Made by a program: the position numbers and the translations under genes. Below the pieces are notes generated by a model that did not search any database, had not been told where the DNA came from, and worked only from the letters and a program-made list of their open reading frames with translations. A stretch of DNA of 64,000 nt from Bacteroidaceae bacterium (GTDB taxonomy: Bacteria > Bacteroidota > Bacteroidia > Bacteroidales > Bacteroidaceae), in the NCBI GenBank assembly GCA_017503065.1, contig JAFVTT010000027.1, forward strand, positions 9,991 to 73,990, in the 5' to 3' direction. Positions 50,370 through 59,131 of this stretch are shown here, in pieces (position 1 is the first letter of the stretch; each line of letters opens with the position of its first letter).

Positions 50370-51065
50370 ATGACAACAAAGCGCATACTGATAGTGGACG
50401 ACGAGGAGACGTTGTGCGAGGTGCTGAAACTGAACCTGGAGAACGAGGGCTATGACGTGGACACGGCCTTCAGTGCCGAACAGGCCATGACCTACAACCT
50501 GAAGTCCTATTCGGTTGTCCTGCTGGATATTATGATGGGCGAGATAAGCGGGATAAGGATGGCCAAGATGATGAAGGCGGATGTCTCCACGGCAGACATA
50601 CCCATAATCTTCTGCACGGCACGTGACACTGAGGACGACATGGTAATGGGGCTTAACCTGGGGGCGGACGACTATATCGTCAAGCCCTATACCATACGCA
50701 ACGTGATTGCACGCATCAGAAGCGTGCTCAGACGTACGTCAGGGCACAAGACGCCACAGGTGCAAACGAAGACAAACACCCTTGTGGTGGAGGGCCTGCA
50801 CCTCGACCTGGAGTTCAAGCGTTGCCTGGTGGACGGCACCGAGGTGAAACTGACCAGAAAGGAATTCGAGTTGCTTGCCTACCTCATCTCCCACCGCGGG
50901 CGTGTGTGCAGTAGGGAGCAGATCCTGAGCCGCGTGTGGAGCGACGAGGTGGTGGTGCTCGACCGCACCATTGACGTCAACATCACCAGATTGCGCTCCA
51001 AGATAGGTCCCTATGGGGCATACATCGTCACCAAATCAGGTTATGGCTATGGCTTCCGCGATTAG
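50370..51065 (+). CDS. OmpR/PhoB-type response regulator
   Basis: A 231-residue regulator: receiver domain (1-120) with DDE at 10-12, phosphoacceptor Asp 53 (VVLLDIMMGEISG) and Lys in YIVKPYT; C-terminal winged helix (about 135-231) with RKEFELLAYLISHRGRVCSREQIL and VDVNITRLRSKIG. Divergent from the phosphate operon, and the repeat in front of that operon looks like a PhoB site, so I read it as the PhoB equivalent. A sensor kinase follows with overlap. Confidence 0.9.
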   Translation: MTTKRILIVDDEETLCEVLKLNLENEGYDVDTAFSAEQAMTYNLKSYSVVLLDIMMGEISGIRMAKMMKADVSTADIPIIFCTARDTEDDMVMGLNLGADDYIVKPYTIRNVIARIRSVLRRTSGHKTPQVQTKTNTLVVEGLHLDLEFKRCLVDGTEVKLTRKEFELLAYLISHRGRVCSREQILSRVWSDEVVVLDRTIDVNITRLRSKIGPYGAYIVTKSGYGYGFRD

Positions 51066-52497: not shown

Positions 52498-52762
52498 CCG
52501 CCACGCAAACGTATTCCGCAAGTTTACCGCCCACCAAACGATAATTTCCTTAAGGGCTTAATATGATATTATTGAACCCAGCCTGTTTAGTTGGGGGGTA
52601 TTAGAAAAGCCAATCTGCCTCGCCATTCAGATGTACATTCCATTGGTAATAAAGATAAACCCGAATCGGGTTTAATCAGAACTACACTATGCAAAAGTTA
52701 CAAGAACGATACGTATAAGCAAAAACAGCACTTCCTATAAAATAAATCCAATATTGTGGAGT

Positions 52763-52828
52763 ATTGTACCAAGCATTGCGTAGCATTGTACTAAATGTTA
52801 AGTATAATTGTACTCAGTATTGGGTACA
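52763..52828 (+). repeat. Three 22-bp direct iterons (ATTGTAC type)
   Basis: ATTGTAC begins at 52763, 52785 and 52807, exactly 22 bp apart; within each unit a weaker second half (ATTGCGTA, TGTTAAGTA, ATTGGGTA) starts 10-12 bp later. A half unit (ATTGTGGAGT) precedes the first, and one more ATTGTAC lies at 52890-52896 at the orphan promoter. Confidence 0.75.
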
Positions 52829-52890
52829 ATTATATAAACATGTATTTCACATATTTATTTCCTTGTCTTAATACTTTTAGTAAGCGTACA

Positions 52891-52919
52891 TTGTACTTTA
52901 GCACAAAAGACTATTTTTG
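52891..52919 (+). promoter_or_regulatory. Orphan promoter
   Basis: TTG (52891-52893), 18 bp, TATTTTTG (52912-52919). No open reading frame of substance starts within the next 500 bp, so it may drive a non-coding RNA or be the leftover promoter of a lost gene. Confidence 0.4.
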
Positions 52920-53126
52920 CCCCTTTCCTCTATTGTCAAAAATAATTGCTTGAAGGAACGGTATCATAAATCATGAATCATGAAATAGTATGATGATAAG
53001 CATGATTTCTACTTTTGAGAGGGATGAATCCTAATGACAAGAACGCTTCCCCGTGTTCCTTAGTGTATATCTCAATGTAGTGACGCTGCGTGCAGCGTCC
53101 GTTTTGTTTGTCGTTCTCGGACGCTG

Positions 53127-53218
53127 CACTCACTTATTCGTAACATTGACCTGTCGGCCTACGGTTCGTCGGTTATTCGCCTTCGCTCATCAAGCTACGC
53201 AAGTCGGGAATAAAAGTT
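53127..53218 (+). repeat. Promoter-repeat, solitary degenerate copy
   Basis: CTCACTTATTCGTAACATTG, then ACCTGTCGGCCTA, and at the end CGGGAATAAAA: the same start and end blocks as the units upstream of metK. Here TACCTTTG has become TAACATTG. The relic regulator sequence begins immediately after it. Confidence 0.65.
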
Positions 53219-53289
53219 TACCAAAATTGCGATTCTTCAGGCAATTTAGGCTAATACGCAAGGCAACCGTGAGTATTGTCATGCTCTAA
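53215..53289 (+). pseudogene. Relic C-terminus of a second TPR/HTH regulator
   Basis: The sequence reads KVYQNCDSSGN and, after a one-base frame change, FRLIRKATVSIVML then a stop. The intact regulator at 54556-56208 ends KVYKKDGSSSDFDHLVRRTMSVALF (two blocks, stop at the same place). The bases after both stops (TCTAAGAT..TGATAAACA) also match. This is therefore the tail of a decayed duplicate. Confidence 0.7.
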
Positions 53290-53317
53290 GATATTGATAA
53301 ACAGATGGTAACGCAAC

Positions 53318-53334
53318 GGCAATTCTTGGCAACT
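53318..53334 (+). promoter_or_regulatory. Candidate operator, acyltransferase copy
   Basis: GGCAATT-ctt-GGCAACT, two half-sites with 10-bp period, 41 bp upstream of TAATTTTG (53376-53383). Same pair and spacing as at 54484-54500 and 56237-56253. Confidence 0.6.
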
Positions 53335-53375
53335 AAAACAATAGAGGTAATGCAGATGTTTTTTATATAATTCAA

Positions 53376-53383
53376 TAATTTTG
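53376..53383 (+). promoter_or_regulatory. Acyltransferase promoter -7 element (duplicated promoter)
   Basis: TAATTTTG. The surrounding 160 bp are homologous to the BspA-like gene's promoter at 56205-56360. After it the relic start ATG AAA TAG TTG TTG TTC TTA (53408 on) parallels ATG AAA AAG TTG TTA TTC TTA of that gene, with a stop at codon 3. Confidence 0.6.
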
Positions 53384-53438
53384 CATCGGTAACTGAAAAC
53401 TTATATTATGAAATAGTTGTTGTTCTTACTGGTGACTA

Positions 53439-54380
53439 ATGAAGAAATATATATTACAGTTGGACTATTTGAAAAGCATCTTTATCATTTTGATGATTTT
53501 ATTTCATTTGGTTTATATTGGTGATACTTATCCTTATTTGAAGAAGGTCGTTTATACATTCCACATGCCTATCTTTCTTGTACTTTCAGGTTACTTGTCA
53601 AGGACAGACAAGAGTATAAAACAATTCACTGTGAATTTTTGGTGGCTTTTCCTGCCATATTCCATTATGGAGTTTGGGTATGTCCTTGTTGCCTCTATTA
53701 TACCTGTCAGAGAACAAATTGGTGATTTGAGTATCGTCAATATTATTAGAACGATTCTAATAGAACCAGTCGGTCCGTATTGGTATTTGCACACATTGCT
53801 GTTGTGCAGAACAGTACATTTTACCATTGTCAGATTGTTTCAACGAAAAGTGGATGATTTTGGACTTCTGATTATTCTCGGACTTTGTTTTTGGGGAATC
53901 TCGCAAGTTGCCGGTCTTATCGTATTCTCTTATTCAATGTTCTTTTGGGTTGGTGTTAGTTTGCGTGTTTTAAACTTTGATTTCCTAACATGGTTTTCTC
54001 CTTCTGCATGGAGTGTCGTTCCTTTAGTTGTTCTTTGCTGTTCCCCGGAAAACATAGGCGGATTTAATTTGGCTGGATGTGCCATCGTCTACTTAATGGT
54101 TAGTTTTTTGCTTTGGGCATACACCATTCTGCCTTCGTCGGTTGTAAGGGTCTGCATGCATGTTGGCAAAAACACTTTGTGCCTGTTGCTGTTTTCTCCT
54201 ATTTTTACCATGCTTTCCCGAATGTATCTGCCGCTATTTATGTTTGAACCAACGGGCATTTGCTTTGCTTCGTTTACGATTGTGTTTACTATTGCCGGTT
54301 GTTTTGCTATTACTTGGTGTATGGATAAACTTAAGATTTCCCCTTGTTTTTTTGGACAGAAAAAGATGTTGAAGATTTAG
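53439..54380 (+). CDS. Membrane acyltransferase (acyltransferase 3 family)
   Basis: A 313-residue integral membrane protein, slightly shorter than usual for the family, with about nine or ten hydrophobic segments. The N-terminus LDYLKSIFIILMILFHLVYIG carries the conserved His of O-acyltransferases, and VVYTFHMPIFLVLSGYLSR is the second family block. It probably transfers an acetyl or similar group onto a surface sugar. Clearly AT-rich compared with neighbours outside the island, suggesting acquisition by transfer. It sits behind a duplicated operator/promoter with the regulator gene downstream. Confidence 0.82.
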   Translation: MKKYILQLDYLKSIFIILMILFHLVYIGDTYPYLKKVVYTFHMPIFLVLSGYLSRTDKSIKQFTVNFWWLFLPYSIMEFGYVLVASIIPVREQIGDLSIVNIIRTILIEPVGPYWYLHTLLLCRTVHFTIVRLFQRKVDDFGLLIILGLCFWGISQVAGLIVFSYSMFFWVGVSLRVLNFDFLTWFSPSAWSVVPLVVLCCSPENIGGFNLAGCAIVYLMVSFLLWAYTILPSSVVRVCMHVGKNTLCLLLFSPIFTMLSRMYLPLFMFEPTGICFASFTIVFTIAGCFAITWCMDKLKISPCFFGQKKMLKI

Positions 54381-54483
54381 AATAATCAAATAAAACCATT
54401 AAACTATGCACGCAATTATATAGCGGCATCAGAATCTTATATGCTTAAAAGATAACAGTTTAAACCCTCAAGAAACTTAGATT

Positions 54484-54548
54484 GGCAACTTCTGGCAACT
54501 ATTTCAGAGCCTATATTCAATCTGTTGGCAATTTTTTGTATAACTTTG
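54484..54548 (+). promoter_or_regulatory. Operator and promoter of the TPR/HTH regulator
   Basis: GGCAACT-tct-GGCAACT (54484-54500), a perfect direct repeat with 10-bp period, 40 bp upstream of TAACTTTG (54541-54548), which lies just 7 bp before the ATG. Suggests autoregulation. Confidence 0.6.
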
Positions 54549-54555
54549 CCATGTC

Positions 54556-56208
54556 ATGACCAAAAGAAAAGTTTGTTTATTATTATTATCCCTGCTGCTT
54601 TTTGCCTGCGGTAAGGGTGGCGACTATGAGCAGATGCGTAAGCAACTGATGAAGGCAAAGACCCAAAATGAAAACTATGAGCCGTTCTCATCAGACAGTA
54701 TGATGCTGCGTGTGGCAGATTATTTCGACCGCAACGGCACTGCCAACGAAAAAATTATGGCCCACTATCTGTTGGGGTGCGTATATCGCGACCTTGGCGA
54801 CATGCCTCGTTCACTTGAATGCTATCATCAGGCAGTAGGCAAGGCCGATACCACTGACGCCGATTGCGACTACCTTTTGCTTGGAAAGGTGCACGGGCAG
54901 ATGGCATACATATATAATAAGGAACTTCTTCCGCAATATCAGTTGGAGCAGTCGTGCCTTTGTCGCCGCTATTCACTGCTTGCCGGCGACACGTTGGCAG
55001 CCATAAGGGCAGAAGACTTCAGTGCCTCTGCCTATTATCTGTTGGACAACGCCGATTCGTGCATTGCCATTAAGGAACGGTGTGCTGAACTTTATCTTGT
55101 ACATGGCGAGAATCTGCGCTTTGCCGAAGCACACTCAGCTCTCACGGCTTTCTACTTGGAAAGCGGAGCTGTGCAGAAAGCGGCGACCTCTTTGGCAAAG
55201 ACAGAACAAACCAAGGAGTTCTTCCTGCCTAATGGCAATGTGATAGGCGGGCGTGAGATTTTCTATTATAATAAAGGACTGCTCCATCTGGCAGAGGGCG
55301 ACACAGAGAAGGCTGAACAATGCTTCCGACGCCTGGCTGTTGTGGCTGATACCAATGTAAACAAGCGTATTGCCGCAGCCCGAGGACTCGCCCTATTGTT
55401 TGAAAAGAAGGGTATGGCAGATTCCACGGCAAAATATGCCATGATGGCTTATGCGCTGAACGACACAATCAACCAGCGGCTGATGCAGTCGGCACTGCCA
55501 ACGATGCAAGCCCTCTACGACTACTCACGATATAAAGACGAAGCATCAAAGAAATCGCAAGAGGCGGCGCACACCAAGATGCTGGTGCTGATACTCGTGG
55601 CAGTGCTGTTGGCAACGGTATTCGTGGCGTATGTCTTCATCAGTAAGACAAGGAGAAGAAAGCAAGAAGAACTGGCGCAACAACAGCATCAGTACGAAAT
55701 GAAGATGGCGCTGCTGTCAAAGGCTAAAGACGACCTTGATGCTCTGTTGGCTGAGAGTGAGGAGCGCAACAGGCAACTCATAGAACAGAAGACGACAGAG
55801 ATAGAGAACTATAAAAGACAGATAGCAGCATATAAGAACGACGGAAGAACGGCAGAGGAAAGAGTCGTCTGCTCATCTGTGGTCAAGCGCTTTCTGCAAA
55901 TGGGCAAGATGGCTACGGAACCTACTGATACCGATTGGGAGGAGTTGCGCAAACTGATAAACATGGAACTTCCCGAGTTCTACGGCATAATGAACGTCAA
56001 CGGGCAATTGCCAATGGTGGAATATCACATCTGTATATTGATAAAATTAGGATTCGGAATCAAGGAAATGTGCAATCTGACGGGCTTCGACAAATATAAA
56101 ATGTCGAAAACACGCCGCCAATTGTTGCAAAAGGTTTACAAAAAAGACGGTTCTTCGAGCGATTTCGACCATTTAGTAAGGAGGACAATGAGCGTTGCGC
56201 TGTTCTAA
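54556..56208 (+). CDS. Membrane-anchored TPR regulator with C-terminal HTH
   Basis: A 550-residue protein: lipoprotein-like signal (LLLFACGKG, Cys about 18), tetratricopeptide-type helices (about 40-325), a membrane helix (342-363), a coiled coil (about 370-430) and a C-terminal winged/HTH-like domain (about 440-535) with YHICILIKLGFGIKEMCNLTGF followed by DKYKMSKTRRQLLQKVY. This layout is common for Bacteroidetes membrane-tethered transcription factors that sense in the periplasm and bind DNA in the cytoplasm. The shared direct repeats in front of it and its neighbours suggest it acts on those promoters. Ligand unknown. Confidence 0.8.
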   Translation: MTKRKVCLLLLSLLLFACGKGGDYEQMRKQLMKAKTQNENYEPFSSDSMMLRVADYFDRNGTANEKIMAHYLLGCVYRDLGDMPRSLECYHQAVGKADTTDADCDYLLLGKVHGQMAYIYNKELLPQYQLEQSCLCRRYSLLAGDTLAAIRAEDFSASAYYLLDNADSCIAIKERCAELYLVHGENLRFAEAHSALTAFYLESGAVQKAATSLAKTEQTKEFFLPNGNVIGGREIFYYNKGLLHLAEGDTEKAEQCFRRLAVVADTNVNKRIAAARGLALLFEKKGMADSTAKYAMMAYALNDTINQRLMQSALPTMQALYDYSRYKDEASKKSQEAAHTKMLVLILVAVLLATVFVAYVFISKTRRRKQEELAQQQHQYEMKMALLSKAKDDLDALLAESEERNRQLIEQKTTEIENYKRQIAAYKNDGRTAEERVVCSSVVKRFLQMGKMATEPTDTDWEELRKLINMELPEFYGIMNVNGQLPMVEYHICILIKLGFGIKEMCNLTGFDKYKMSKTRRQLLQKVYKKDGSSSDFDHLVRRTMSVALF

Positions 56209-56236
56209 GATGCTGATAAACAAACAGTAGCGCATT

Positions 56237-56301
56237 GGTAATTTATGGCAACTAAAACAACAAGGGAAGCAGTGTCGATGTTATATAATTTAATAATTTT
56301 G
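56237..56301 (+). promoter_or_regulatory. Operator and promoter of the BspA-like gene
   Basis: GGTAATT-tat-GGCAACT (56237-56253), 40 bp upstream of TAATTTTG (56294-56301). The entire region 56205-56360 aligns with 53283-53440. Confidence 0.6.
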
Positions 56302-56327
56302 CCTCAGAAACTAAAAACTGATATAAT

Positions 56328-58025
56328 ATGAAAAAGTTGTTATTCTTATTGGTGTTGATGGTTTGTATGCCACAAATAATAATGGCAGACAATTATCTGA
56401 TTGATGGAAGAACTTGGATTTACGAGAAATATTCGCTTTCCGATTCGGGCGAAAAGAAAATAGAAGAGTTTAGCATAACGGTTGGCGGCAATACTTTATT
56501 TGAAAACCGGTGGTGCAAGAGTCTTGTCTATTCAGATGGTGGCAAGACAATTCTGGCAGGCGTAGCATATGAGACCGAGGACGGCAAGGTGAATATTTAC
56601 AATACCTTGCAAATGGACAATGCCTATTTCCTGCATGAAGGCTGGATGTGTACCCATGATTTTGGCTTGCATGAGGGAGACAAAGTGCCGTTTATTTATG
56701 GCTTTGAAAAAACGCCTTATATTGTTGGCAGGATAGATTCAATAGATGTAAAGGGCGAGATACGCAAACGATGGAATGCTGTAATCGAAGAGTCAGATAG
56801 TTGTGCAACCTTTTCGGTTGTTGAAGGAATTGGCAACAGCAAGTATGGTATTTATGCTTTTTGTTCTCTTGAACGAGATCGTTATCCATTATACTCTTTC
56901 GTGTCGTGCTATCAGGGCAACAGATGTATTTTCGAGGCAAAAGATTTTAACTTGAGCTCTCGGTCAGACAGTTATGTCAGTGTCTATATCCCGCAATCGG
57001 CAGAAAGCTATTTACTTAATACACTAGAGCAGCTGCTTACTGACAGCCAGAAAGAAAAAATGGTAGGTCTTGCTATTTGTGGTTATCCCCAAACATCAGA
57101 TTTTGAATATATACGTGACAATCTTCTGCCGCAACTGGAGCATCTCGACCTATGCCATGCAGAAGTCGATACAATGCCAGAAAGGGCTTTCGACACAACA
57201 TTGTCCGAGAATAATGCGACGGCAAAGTACATAATACTGCCAAAGACGCTGACGCATCTGAGCGACAACGCACTGTGCGTTTATCCTAACAAGGTTACAT
57301 ATGAGGTTACGGGTAGGTTTCCTTCGTTGGGAAAGAACATATATTCGCATGATGGAAGACCGTCAAACAATATCTTTATATTACCGTCGCAAGGCAACGA
57401 ATACCTGACGCTACACACTATTGACCCAACAGACGGTTCATCAGGACCAGTGAGAGGACTGTTGCCGATGAAGCAGACGAAAGAAGAAGGCGACTCGCTT
57501 GGCGGTTCAGTGGTAGTATCAATGGATGGCAATACATTGTATTATGTAAATCCTACGGCGTGTCATAAATATGCCATACCTCAGAATATAACAGGGATTT
57601 ACTCTAATGCAATGGAGAACAAACGCTTGCAGGCCTCGTTCAATATTCCTGAAAAAGTAGATACCATTGGCGACAGGGCATTCTATGGTTTGCAGATTGT
57701 GCAAACAAGGAACTCATCGCCAGTGTATTATATGTCGTGTAGCAAGAACACGCCGCCACTCATTGGCAATGAAGTTTTCGACAAGTCGTCGCTGGTTACT
57801 GGCAACCATGTGTTCTATGTAGGCAAAGAAAGCGTAAGCATTTATAAGAACACTAACGGTTGGGACAAGTTATGCTATGGAAATCTTGACGATGTGTGTG
57901 GTCTTGAGGGAGTTGAGACTGCCAGAGAACTATCACCATATTATTACGATCTGCAAGGGCGACGCATTATCAATCCAATAAAAGGATTGTATATACATAA
58001 TGGCCAGAAGGTGATTGTGAGATAA
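56328..58025 (+). CDS. BspA-like leucine-rich repeat surface protein
   Basis: A 565-residue exported protein (signal peptide 1-20). The N-terminal 200 residues resemble a beta-rich domain found in Prevotella/Bacteroides surface proteins. LRR_5/BspA-type repeats follow (for example VDTMPERAFD, KTLTHLSDNALCVYP and NIPEKVDTIGDRAFYGL), then the family closing block VFYVGKESVSIYKNTNGWDKL. The last 26 residues, YYDLQGRRIINPIKGLYIHNG and then QKVIVR, are a short C-terminal tail seen on many Bacteroidales exported proteins and similar to the end of type IX sorting domains. BspA proteins bind host matrix or other bacteria. Co-transcribed with the methyltransferase. Confidence 0.82.
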   Translation: MKKLLFLLVLMVCMPQIIMADNYLIDGRTWIYEKYSLSDSGEKKIEEFSITVGGNTLFENRWCKSLVYSDGGKTILAGVAYETEDGKVNIYNTLQMDNAYFLHEGWMCTHDFGLHEGDKVPFIYGFEKTPYIVGRIDSIDVKGEIRKRWNAVIEESDSCATFSVVEGIGNSKYGIYAFCSLERDRYPLYSFVSCYQGNRCIFEAKDFNLSSRSDSYVSVYIPQSAESYLLNTLEQLLTDSQKEKMVGLAICGYPQTSDFEYIRDNLLPQLEHLDLCHAEVDTMPERAFDTTLSENNATAKYIILPKTLTHLSDNALCVYPNKVTYEVTGRFPSLGKNIYSHDGRPSNNIFILPSQGNEYLTLHTIDPTDGSSGPVRGLLPMKQTKEEGDSLGGSVVVSMDGNTLYYVNPTACHKYAIPQNITGIYSNAMENKRLQASFNIPEKVDTIGDRAFYGLQIVQTRNSSPVYYMSCSKNTPPLIGNEVFDKSSLVTGNHVFYVGKESVSIYKNTNGWDKLCYGNLDDVCGLEGVETARELSPYYYDLQGRRIINPIKGLYIHNGQKVIVR

Positions 58026-58104
58026 CGGAATAACAATATTTTTACTGACACCCCTGTTTGTGCATCCCGAATTTGGAGTGCACAGGGGATGTCGTGTGCA
58101 AAAA

Positions 58105-58920
58105 ATGATTATGCAGGAAAGACATATTAATAGGAAGCAGTACTTTGAAGAGCAGGCAGCAACCTCAAAGAAATATTATCTTAAAGAGACAGATTACTTT
58201 GTAAAGCTAAGGTCTGGCATTCGTGTTCTTGAAGTAGGATGTGGCGAAGGTGGCAACCTACTGCCTTATGCAAAGGCAGGTTGTCTGGTAACAGGTATGG
58301 ACTTAGACCCGACCCGCATACGGCAGGCTAATAGCTTTTTCAAGGAGCATGGTATGCCAGGAACGTTTATTTGTGGCGATTTTTTAGAGGCAGAACAGCC
58401 CGTTTCCGAAGATGGACGCTACGATATTGTGCTGGTGCACGACGTGATAGAACATATAAATCAGCTGGACAAACCGAAGTTTATGATGCAGATAAGGCAT
58501 TTCATGAGGACAAACAGTATTGCCTTCTTTGGTTTCCCTGCTTGGCAGATGCCCTTTGGCGGTCATCAGCAAATAGCCAAGGGCTTTGTTTCGCGGGTGC
58601 CTTTTATCCATTTGCTGCCGGAAAATATTTATGCGAAGTTGTTAAGGATTAGTGGCGAGAGTGAACAGTGTGTCAGCGAACTGCTCAGTATCAAACATAC
58701 GCAAGTAACGATAGAACTGTTTGAACGCCTATGTGCTGAAACCGACATGTTGGTTGCAAAGCGCACGCTTTGGTTTGTTAATCCTCACTACGAACAAAAG
58801 TTCGGATTGCACCCGCGTCGGCTGTGGAAATGGCTTGCAGCATTAGCCTACGCACGCAATTATTTCACCACATCAGCATTTTATCTGCTTAAGAGTTTGC
58901 CGCGAGGAGAAAATAAGTAA
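58105..58920 (+). CDS. Class I SAM-dependent methyltransferase
   Basis: About 271 residues from the ATG at 58105 (58111 is an alternative; a GTG at 58060 opens the frame further). Rossmann-fold methyltransferase (Methyltransf_11/23 type): motif I VLEVGCGEGGNLLPYAKAG, acidic motif II in TGMDLDPTRI, and VLVHDVIEHI as post-motif. The C-terminal third is distinct and may set substrate specificity. It starts 80 bp after the BspA-like gene and has no visible promoter, so it belongs to the same unit. Target unknown; a glycan or lipid is plausible. Confidence 0.8.
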   Translation: MIMQERHINRKQYFEEQAATSKKYYLKETDYFVKLRSGIRVLEVGCGEGGNLLPYAKAGCLVTGMDLDPTRIRQANSFFKEHGMPGTFICGDFLEAEQPVSEDGRYDIVLVHDVIEHINQLDKPKFMMQIRHFMRTNSIAFFGFPAWQMPFGGHQQIAKGFVSRVPFIHLLPENIYAKLLRISGESEQCVSELLSIKHTQVTIELFERLCAETDMLVAKRTLWFVNPHYEQKFGLHPRRLWKWLAALAYARNYFTTSAFYLLKSLPRGENK

Positions 58921-59131
58921 CAATGCATCCTGAAACGATGATCAGTAGATGTTGAGCGGTGAACGCTGAACATGGCATAATATGGCGAAAGACATGGCAA
59001 TGTCTTGGCCGATACAATACGTTCTCTGCCCTTTGCCGTCGTATTGTCCGAGTCCTCGCGTCGTATTATCCAAGTGCGGTCCTCTCGTCTATGTCTTCTT
59101 AAATAAAACACATGCACCTCGTAATTCGGAT
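58921..59131. other. Non-coding stretch with short direct repeats
   Basis: No supported gene. CGTCGTATTGTCC (about 59037-59049) and CGTCGTATTATCC (about 59059-59071) are near-identical direct repeats, and GATACAATACG at 59011 is a partial inverse. Purpose not apparent. Confidence 0.4.

What the first reader, a model, noticed from the sequence alone, without database searches (positions are those of the whole stretch)
53215..58920. A small self-regulated surface-protein regulon with a shared 17-bp operator
Three promoters in this island carry the same element: GGYAAYT-N3-GGCAACT, two half-sites with a 10-bp period, at 53318-53334, 54484-54500 and 56237-56253. Each lies 40-41 bp upstream of a TAnnTTTG box. 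They precede a membrane acyltransferase, a membrane-tethered TPR/HTH regulator and a BspA-like surface protein followed by a methyltransferase. Seen directly: the repeats and the fixed spacing. Inferred: the regulator binds them, controls itself and switches on adhesin plus surface-modifying enzymes together.
Basis: partly seen in the sequence, partly recalled or inferred. Interest (0 to 1): 0.8.

Follow-up and report, generated by a model that had tools for sequence, protein, structure and literature searches.

The report
Membrane regulators with private direct-repeat operators
A gut bacterium's membrane-anchored sensor protein appears to have its own DNA landing site, a short sequence repeated one helix turn apart that marks its own gene and a neighbouring surface-protein gene, and many related sensors carry differently spelled versions of the same arrangement, which may help decode how these bacteria control what they display.

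Summary
The three elements and their spacing are real: 0 mismatches, 57-58 bp from element start to TAnnTTTG. They are not three independent promoters: sites 1 and 3 are duplicates (75% identical), and site 1 is the relic of a dead regulator/surface-protein unit. A relative (L036, regulator 89% identical) lacks the acyltransferase and keeps only a tail of the methyltransferase, yet keeps the operator at all three places, each 57 bp before a box. In that whole genome a loosened operator occurs 4 times: 3 here, 1 inside a gene. So the core is regulator plus BspA-like protein; the 'adhesin plus modifying enzymes' regulon is weak.

The larger result: the regulator belongs to a big family (lipobox, TPR domain, membrane helix, LuxR/NarL-like HTH). 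Adjacent promoters carry direct repeats of 7 nt or more at a 10- or 11-bp period: 33 of 112 replication promoters versus 1 of 98 remote controls. Half-sites differ between paralogs, correlate with the HTH domain and lie in helical phase with the -7 box. Of 48 recovered targets, 35 look like small secreted DUF3244-like proteins. I found no description of this in the papers searched. Binding and activation are inferred.

The parts
53212..53289 (+). Relic of the 3' end of a second regulator copy (pseudogene tail, aligned TAA at its end)
   Evidence: aligns with the regulator 3' end before site 3; also present in L036 from 7999
53318..53334 (+). Operator 1, GGCAATT CTT GGCAACT
   Evidence: exact match; counterpart GGCAATCTTTGGCAACT in L036
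53376..53383 (+). -7 box TAATTTTG of promoter 1
53408..53416 (+). Relic gene start ATGAAATAG of a dead BspA-like copy
   Evidence: aligns with the start of the intact BspA-like gene
53439..54380 (+). Membrane acyltransferase, accessory: absent from L036 at this place
   Evidence: PF01757 E=2.8e-22; L036 joins relic and regulator promoter directly
54484..54500 (+). Operator 2, GGCAACT TCT GGCAACT (regulator's own promoter)
   Evidence: conserved in L036
54541..54548 (+). -7 box TAACTTTG of the regulator promoter
54556..56208 (+). Regulator, 550 aa: lipobox, TPR domain about 21-284, predicted membrane helix ~342-364, long helix, HTH
   Evidence: Pfam TPRs; AlphaFold2 mean pLDDT 88; hydropathy; C18 nearly invariant in the 39-row alignment
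55579..55647 (+). Predicted membrane helix of the regulator (residues ~342-364)
   Evidence: hydropathy maximum 3.07 at 344-362
56014..56139 (+). LuxR/NarL-like HTH of the regulator (residues 487-528)
56237..56253 (+). Operator 3, GGTAATT TAT GGCAACT
   Evidence: L036 has GGCAATATTTAGCAACT, 57 bp before TACATTTG
56294..56301 (+). -7 box TAATTTTG of the BspA-like gene
56328..58025 (+). BspA-like LRR surface protein, 565 aa (main target)
   Evidence: LRR_5 26.8 bits, just under the 27.7 cut-off in the window, 28.2 in L036; 85% identical to the L036 copy from residue 19
58105..58920 (+). Methyltransferase downstream, no operator match of its own; only a 94-bp match at its 3' end in L036
   Evidence: PF13649 E=8.2e-15

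Best explanation
The 550-aa protein is a one-component membrane-tethered transcription factor. Its TPR domain lies in the periplasm (signal sequence with lipobox), one helix crosses the inner membrane, and a LuxR/NarL-like HTH reads DNA from the membrane. Two HTH domains bind side by side on one face of DNA at two half-sites one helix turn apart (GGYAAYN-N3-RGCAACT). From there, in helical phase with the -7 box, they contact RNA polymerase and activate the neighbouring surface-protein gene and the regulator's own gene. The operator is private: paralogs in the family have their own half-site spellings, matched to the HTH. Shown: operators, spacing, conservation in a relative, family-wide 10/11-bp repeats, phase, HTH-operator correlation. 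Inferred: topology, binding, dimer geometry, activation rather than repression, autoregulation, ligand.
For: Exact sites and spacing in the window. In L036 the operator is kept at all three places, each 57 bp before a TAnnTTTG; the BspA-like promoter there has strongly diverged flanks (12 of 28 and 33 of 66 positions identical in register, no BLASTN match longer than 12 nt). In that 3.3-Mb genome only 4 loose matches exist, 3 of them here and 1 inside a gene (reversed control 2). Family: exact lag-10/11 repeats of 7 nt or more before TAnnTTTG in 19 of 56 discovery and 33 of 112 replication promoters (27 of 67 downstream, 6 of 45 before the regulator), against 1 of 98 remote control promoters (Fisher 1.6e-9 for replication); in the replication set other lags give 0-3. 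Other genera of the same family: lag 10 5 and lag 11 11 of 66 promoters; g26/g27: 1 and 8 of 62. First half-site 47-49 or 57-59 bp from the box in 63 of 78 sites, R 0.79. Half-site distance correlates with distance of the C-terminal domain over 63 regulators (Mantel r 0.31, 0 of 5000 permutations; TPR domain alone r 0.27, 0 of 5000; C-terminal given TPR 0.18, 0 of 2000; TPR given C-terminal 0.08). In 4 of 4 pairs of a regulator's own and a target promoter the repeats agree (0.94-1.0); L280 is a further case in another genus.
Against: No binding or expression data. 45 of 123 regulators show no such repeat of 6 nt or more at a qualifying promoter within 700 bp (118 of 123 had a box to test). Loci picked with the BT3442 model across the order hardly show it (of 45 promoters, 2 at lag 10 and 1 at lag 11 at 7 nt or more, other lags up to 2). 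Promoters of other genes inside regulator loci are also enriched (15 of 103); several look like divergent genes read from the same repeat. In the g26/g27 set lag 16 gives 4 (one simple-sequence locus) and lag 22 gives 3. Correlation with the C-terminal domain partly reflects shared descent. In L036 the BspA-like operator also has a second box, TAAATTTG at 40 bp. Sites 1 and 3 in the window are duplicates. Nine other within-locus site pairs mostly disagree.
Confidence: 0.78

Rival explanations
1. The repeats are only shared descent: one promoter was duplicated with its gene, and the regulator's own element is a coincidence.
For: Sites 1 and 3 are clearly duplicates.
Against: Site 2 has no BLASTN match longer than 9 nt with them, and the L036 BspA-like promoter none longer than 12 nt with site 3, yet both keep the element at 57 bp; remote controls show 1 of 98.
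Confidence: 0.07
2. Another factor, such as the neighbouring response-regulator-like ORF (50370-51065) or a global regulator, reads the repeats.
For: Response-regulator-like and histidine-kinase-like ORFs lie upstream (by eye, no domain search); direct repeats are used by other regulators too.
Against: Half-site spelling differs from locus to locus and correlates with the adjacent regulator's C-terminal domain; remote promoters lack the repeats.
Confidence: 0.08
3. The regulator represses rather than activates: it sits on the operator and is released by a ligand.
For: Nothing in the sequence excludes it; one class of operators lies close to the -33 region.
Against: Operators end about 29-42 bp upstream of the -7 box and are spaced in helical phase, a geometry I would expect of activators; SusR, a membrane-tethered regulator of the same general kind, activates (PMC3878776).
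Confidence: 0.2
4. A coordinated surface-remodelling regulon (adhesin, acyltransferase, methyltransferase).
For: Operator 1 ends 105 bp before the acyltransferase start, and the methyltransferase follows the BspA-like gene on the same strand.
Against: Both enzymes are missing or reduced in L036 while regulator, operators and BspA-like gene stay; operator 1 is part of a relic.
Confidence: 0.2

Closest known systems
SusR and SusR-like regulators of Bacteroides (PMC3878776: passages and section 7 read)
   Same: Membrane protein with periplasmic sensor and cytoplasmic HTH; direct-repeat sites whose spelling follows the regulator
   Different: Predicted SusR sites lie 67 or 77 bp apart centre to centre and serve glycan-use genes; here 10-11 bp apart, before small secreted or BspA-like proteins. 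NCBIfam SusR model far below its cut-off (19.5 of 480 bits)
BT3442 family (NCBIfam NF053779) with BT_3441 (PMC2954219: passages read)
   Same: A TPR protein next to a secreted Ig-like-fold protein (BT_3441 is called a homologue of BVU_0276, 3d33); that 3d33 is a DUF3244 protein is recalled
   Different: Described there only as a multi-domain TPR protein, perhaps interacting with the MACPF protein; the passages seen do not call it a regulator. Loci picked with this model do not clearly show 10/11-bp repeats. The window protein is not matched by the model. 3d33 is not among the six structures that the profile of the small targets finds at E<=1
LuxR/NarL-type DNA-binding domains (DosR, NarL, VraR, LiaR, DegU)
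   Different: No receiver domain, membrane-tethered, no Pfam GerE match; direct half-sites differ between paralogs
HTCS direct repeats of Bacteroides (PMC3878776 passages)
   Same: Direct-repeat operators whose logo follows the regulator
   Different: AraC-type HTH, about 21 bp between tandem sites, hybrid two-component systems

Membership tests
SusR family (NF058541) | Model score at or over the curated cut-off (480 bits) | tested here: not met
   19.5 bits, E=4.6e-4
SusR family (NF058541) | Direct-repeat site with 67 or 77 bp between centres | tested here: not met
   10-bp period in the window; published spacing from PMC3878776
SusR family (NF058541) | Periplasmic sensor, membrane helix, C-terminal cytoplasmic HTH | tested here: inconclusive
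   Agrees by prediction only; topology not measured
BT3442 family (NF053779) | Model score at or over 940 bits | tested here: not met
   Window regulator not listed at E<=0.1; 12 of 39 relatives match at E<=0.001; of five relatives scored singly three reach 33-74 bits and two are not listed
LuxR/NarL HTH superfamily | HTH fold of the GerE type | tested here: inconclusive
LuxR/NarL HTH superfamily | Pfam GerE model match | tested here: not met
   No GerE among families at E<=0.1 for the window protein or among the 18 families listed for 39 members at E<=0.001, where three other HTH families match one member each
BspA-like LRR_5 surface proteins (PF13306) | Score over the gathering cut-off of 27.7 bits | tested here: inconclusive
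   26.8 in the window, 28.2 in the L036 orthologue
DUF3244 (PF11589), for the window's target | Domain match | tested here: not met
   Not listed for the 565-aa protein at E<=0.1. Small targets elsewhere: 14 of 35 at E<=0.01; the three that match when scored singly stay under the 25-bit cut-off (15.8-24.7)

The most novel reading that the evidence does not exclude
Bacteroidaceae (family inferred) carry an expanded family of self-cognate transmembrane one-component switches, up to 14 model matches per genome, in which regulators own a private one-turn direct-repeat operator in front of a small secreted Ig-like (DUF3244-type) or BspA-like protein. That product, once exported, may be the ligand or reporter read by the regulator's periplasmic TPR domain: a large set of insulated, individually addressed surface-signalling loops whose DNA code is readable from sequence.
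Probability: 0.25. Interest if true: 0.82.

Novelty: new variant of a known kind. Interest (0 to 1): 0.63.

Why it matters
Regulators that sense outside the cell and touch DNA directly are hard to assign to targets. Here the operator can often be read from sequence beside the gene, the spelling correlates with the HTH, and the geometry is fixed, so many uncharacterised TPR proteins of gut bacteria become predicted transcription factors with named target promoters. It would also turn DUF3244-type secreted proteins (the domain name occurs in two papers of the library searched) into products of dedicated sensors.

Tried and rejected
Rejected: site 1 as an independent regulon member (relic). Rejected: that the 565-aa protein or the longer L036 N-terminus holds a DUF3244-type domain (only weak, short matches with the small-protein profile). 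Not pursued: RRNPP membership; two Rap chains appear among the TPR fold matches, but those regulators are cytoplasmic (recalled). Potempin A matches the small secreted proteins only at E=0.13-0.15: a lead. The 77-80 bp class before some regulators was first read as a third activator position; by eye it is mostly the divergent gene's operator read backwards. A DNA search for the promoter stretch in 139 genomes of the genus gave only short matches in 4. Loci picked with the BT3442 model: no clear enrichment. The homologue search (281 proteins, 120 listed, none with a name) gave no annotation. Literature: 5 papers; 3; broad; 2 with DUF3244; 1 with BT3442; 0; 15 with TAnnTTTG, listing of 8 only. 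None of what I saw describes this operator arrangement; subscription papers are mostly not held. Seen: PMC3878776 passages and section 7; PMC2954219 passages; PMC10434189 passages; the rest listings only.

Rows dropped and choices made: one search left out five sites with doubtful register (L129, L152, L149, L195, L136) and the second, low-scoring regulator of L180 (78 to 72), then reduced 72 regulators to 63 at 75% identity of the C-terminal domain. Searches dropped promoters over 70% identical; one search dropped only identical ones, so one repeat can count from two boxes there (L293, L279). One of the 20 'other genera' loci (L276) is of g27. The 78 sites are the best site per regulator, preferring 44-66 bp from the box, and are not deduplicated, so the phase statistic overstates independence. 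Test promoters include every box in the downstream gap, remote controls the last box before an ORF. Replication loci were taken roughly in score order from the list, skipping loci already used and several partial matches (80 loci). The 35 of 48 targets called small and secreted were chosen by eye from N-terminus and C-terminal motif; no signal-peptide program was run; one of the 48 is itself a regulator (L180). The 4-of-4 agreement is from 13 within-locus pairs; the other 9 range from 0.35 to 0.59, apart from one overlapping pair (L140, 1.0).
Full report
WHAT IS IN THE WINDOW. The pattern GGYAAYTNNNGGCAACT occurs at 53318-53334, 54484-54500 and 56237-56253, each without mismatch, and nowhere else in the window at up to two mismatches; with that tolerance shuffles give 1.65 hits on average and 23 of 100 reach three. 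TAnnTTTG boxes start 58, 57 and 57 bp after the element starts. The genes are an Acyl_transf_3 membrane protein, a TPR protein, a BspA-like LRR protein just under the LRR_5 cut-off, and a methyltransferase.

SITES 1 AND 3 ARE DUPLICATES, AND SITE 1 IS A RELIC. The stretch 53212-53434 matches the stretch around site 3 at 74.6% over 228 columns, covering the regulator's 3' tail, the promoter and the first codons of the surface protein; in site 1 the start reads ATGAAATAG. The window therefore keeps the remains of a tandem regulator/surface-protein unit, and the acyltransferase now follows that dead unit's promoter. Site 2 has no BLASTN match longer than 9 nt with either.

A RELATIVE SEPARATES CORE FROM CARGO. 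L036 (JAFQQY010000035.1, titled Prevotella sp. RGIG2070, goat colon) encodes the regulator at 89% identity. There the relic runs straight into the regulator's operator with no acyltransferase between, and of the methyltransferase only a 94-bp stretch at its 3' end matches. Direction of change cannot be told. The L036 surface protein is 85% identical from residue 19 on but has a different, longer N-terminus and a strongly diverged promoter: in register with the operator, 12 of 28 positions to the left and 33 of 66 to the right are identical, and BLASTN finds nothing longer than 12 nt. It still carries GGCAATATTTAGCAACT 57 bp before TACATTTG (another box, TAAATTTG, lies at 40); the other two L036 sites are also at 57. 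In the whole 3.3-Mb genome GGYAAYNNNNRGCAACT has 4 matches (2 for the reversed control); 3 are these, the fourth is inside an ORF with no box at that distance. In the nearest held genome, G001, the five one-mismatch matches lie inside open frames, none with a TAnnTTTG in the 140 bp from the site on its own strand; G001 has other ORFs at this spot before metK.

A FAMILY-WIDE ARRANGEMENT. Forty-two regulators (the window, two named contigs and 39 loci of unnamed relatives found among 61 genomes) gave 58 adjacent promoters with a TAnnTTTG box. In the 80 to 25 bp before the box, exact direct repeats of at least 7 nt occur at lag 10 in 9 and lag 11 in 12, against about 0.5 expected, and at 0 or 1 for all other lags from 5 to 21. 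With the same box, stretch and threshold I then took 80 further loci of the genus. After removing promoters over 70% identical, 33 of 112 replication promoters have such a repeat at lag 10 or 11 (27 of 67 downstream of the regulator, 6 of 45 before it), 19 of 56 discovery promoters do, and 1 of 98 promoters in 21 remote regions without a family match does (Fisher 1.6e-9 for replication). Fifteen other lags in the replication set average 0.6, at most 3. Promoters of other genes inside regulator loci show 15 of 103; several look like divergent genes served by the same repeat. Per regulator, 78 of 123 have a repeat of 6 nt or more at a qualifying promoter within 700 bp and 66 of 123 one of 7 nt or more; 5 had no box to test.

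PHASE AND SPELLING. Aligning the best site per regulator gives a loose half-site [GA]T[GC][AT]AnT that points at the promoter; the window's GGCAACT fits except for G at the second place. The first half-site starts 47-49 bp (22 sites) or 57-59 bp (41 sites) from the box, of 78: one helix turn apart, R 0.79 (sites not deduplicated). Spelling differs between paralogs and correlates with the C-terminal domain: over 63 regulators the Mantel correlation is 0.31 (0 of 5000 permutations); for the TPR domain it is 0.27 (0 of 5000). Allowing for the TPR domain the C-terminal correlation is 0.18 (0 of 2000), against 0.08 the other way round. So part of it is common descent. By eye in that output, regulators with a Trp-Arg-Trp recognition helix go with TGAAAC, and those with a Tyr/Phe-Ala/Ser ... 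Arg-x-Arg helix with GTCA-type repeats. In the four loci with separate repeats at the regulator's own and a target promoter, the repeats agree (0.94-1.0; random pairs 0.51 on average, 95th percentile 0.78); nine other within-locus pairs mostly do not.

BREADTH. In 20 loci from other genera of the same family the arrangement recurs (lag 10: 5, lag 11: 11 of 66 promoters at 7 nt or more, other lags up to 2), and in 20 loci of genera g26/g27 at lag 11 (8 of 62; lag 10: 1; lag 16: 4 from one simple-sequence locus; lag 22: 3), with other spellings such as TGCGTAC and CCGCACA. It does not clearly hold in 22 regulators from 20 loci picked with the BT3442 model across the order, a few of them of the same family (lag 10: 2, lag 11: 1 of 45). 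133 of 139 genomes of the genus have a family match at E<=0.001, up to 14 matches per genome, some partial.

TARGETS. Of 48 targets recovered outside the window, I picked 35 by eye as small (105-139 aa) proteins with signal-like N-termini and a shared C-terminal motif; 14 of the 35 hit DUF3244 at E<=0.01, and the three that match when scored singly stay under its cut-off. The window's BspA-like protein is a less usual target. The pairing of a TPR protein (BT_3442) with an Ig-like-fold protein (BT_3441, homologue of 3d33) was mentioned for B. thetaiotaomicron, without a regulatory reading in the passages seen (PMC2954219).

MECHANISM. I take the regulator to be an activator that binds as a side-by-side pair on one face of the DNA next to RNA polymerase, at its own promoter and at the BspA-like gene. 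Operators, spacing, conservation, phase and correlation are shown. Topology, binding, activation, autoregulation and the signal are inferred. The predicted SusR sites (67 or 77 bp between centres; PMC3878776 section 7) are a different geometry, so this may work like SusR but is not a SusR by the tests run.

LIMITS.

Noticed in passing
L049 7366-10964 against window 53072-58964: In the nearest held genome the spot between a conserved stretch (window 52668-53072) and metK holds different ORFs (338, 394, 211 and 139 aa): a variable locus.
   Followed up: partly
L253, promoter of the 117-aa ORF downstream of the regulator: TTTTGTCCATATC occurs twice about 21 bp apart (two helix turns) before the box, a possible two-turn version of the arrangement in a BT3442-model locus (by eye).
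   Followed up: no
L067, L086, L087, L088, L186, L187 C-termini: A group with tryptophans in the recognition helix (VTVWRW type) goes with TGAAAC half-sites (by eye).
   Followed up: partly
A3 small secreted target proteins: Weak profile matches among solved structures: 4g5a (E=0.0018) and Tannerella potempin A (E=0.13).
   Followed up: no
L129 divergent promoter: Four perfect GTGAAGTTTTT units in a row at 11-bp period before the box: an amplified operator.
   Followed up: no
window 58025-58105: An imperfect inverted repeat (CCCCTGT...ACAGGGG) without a T run lies between the BspA-like gene and the methyltransferase (by eye).
   Followed up: no
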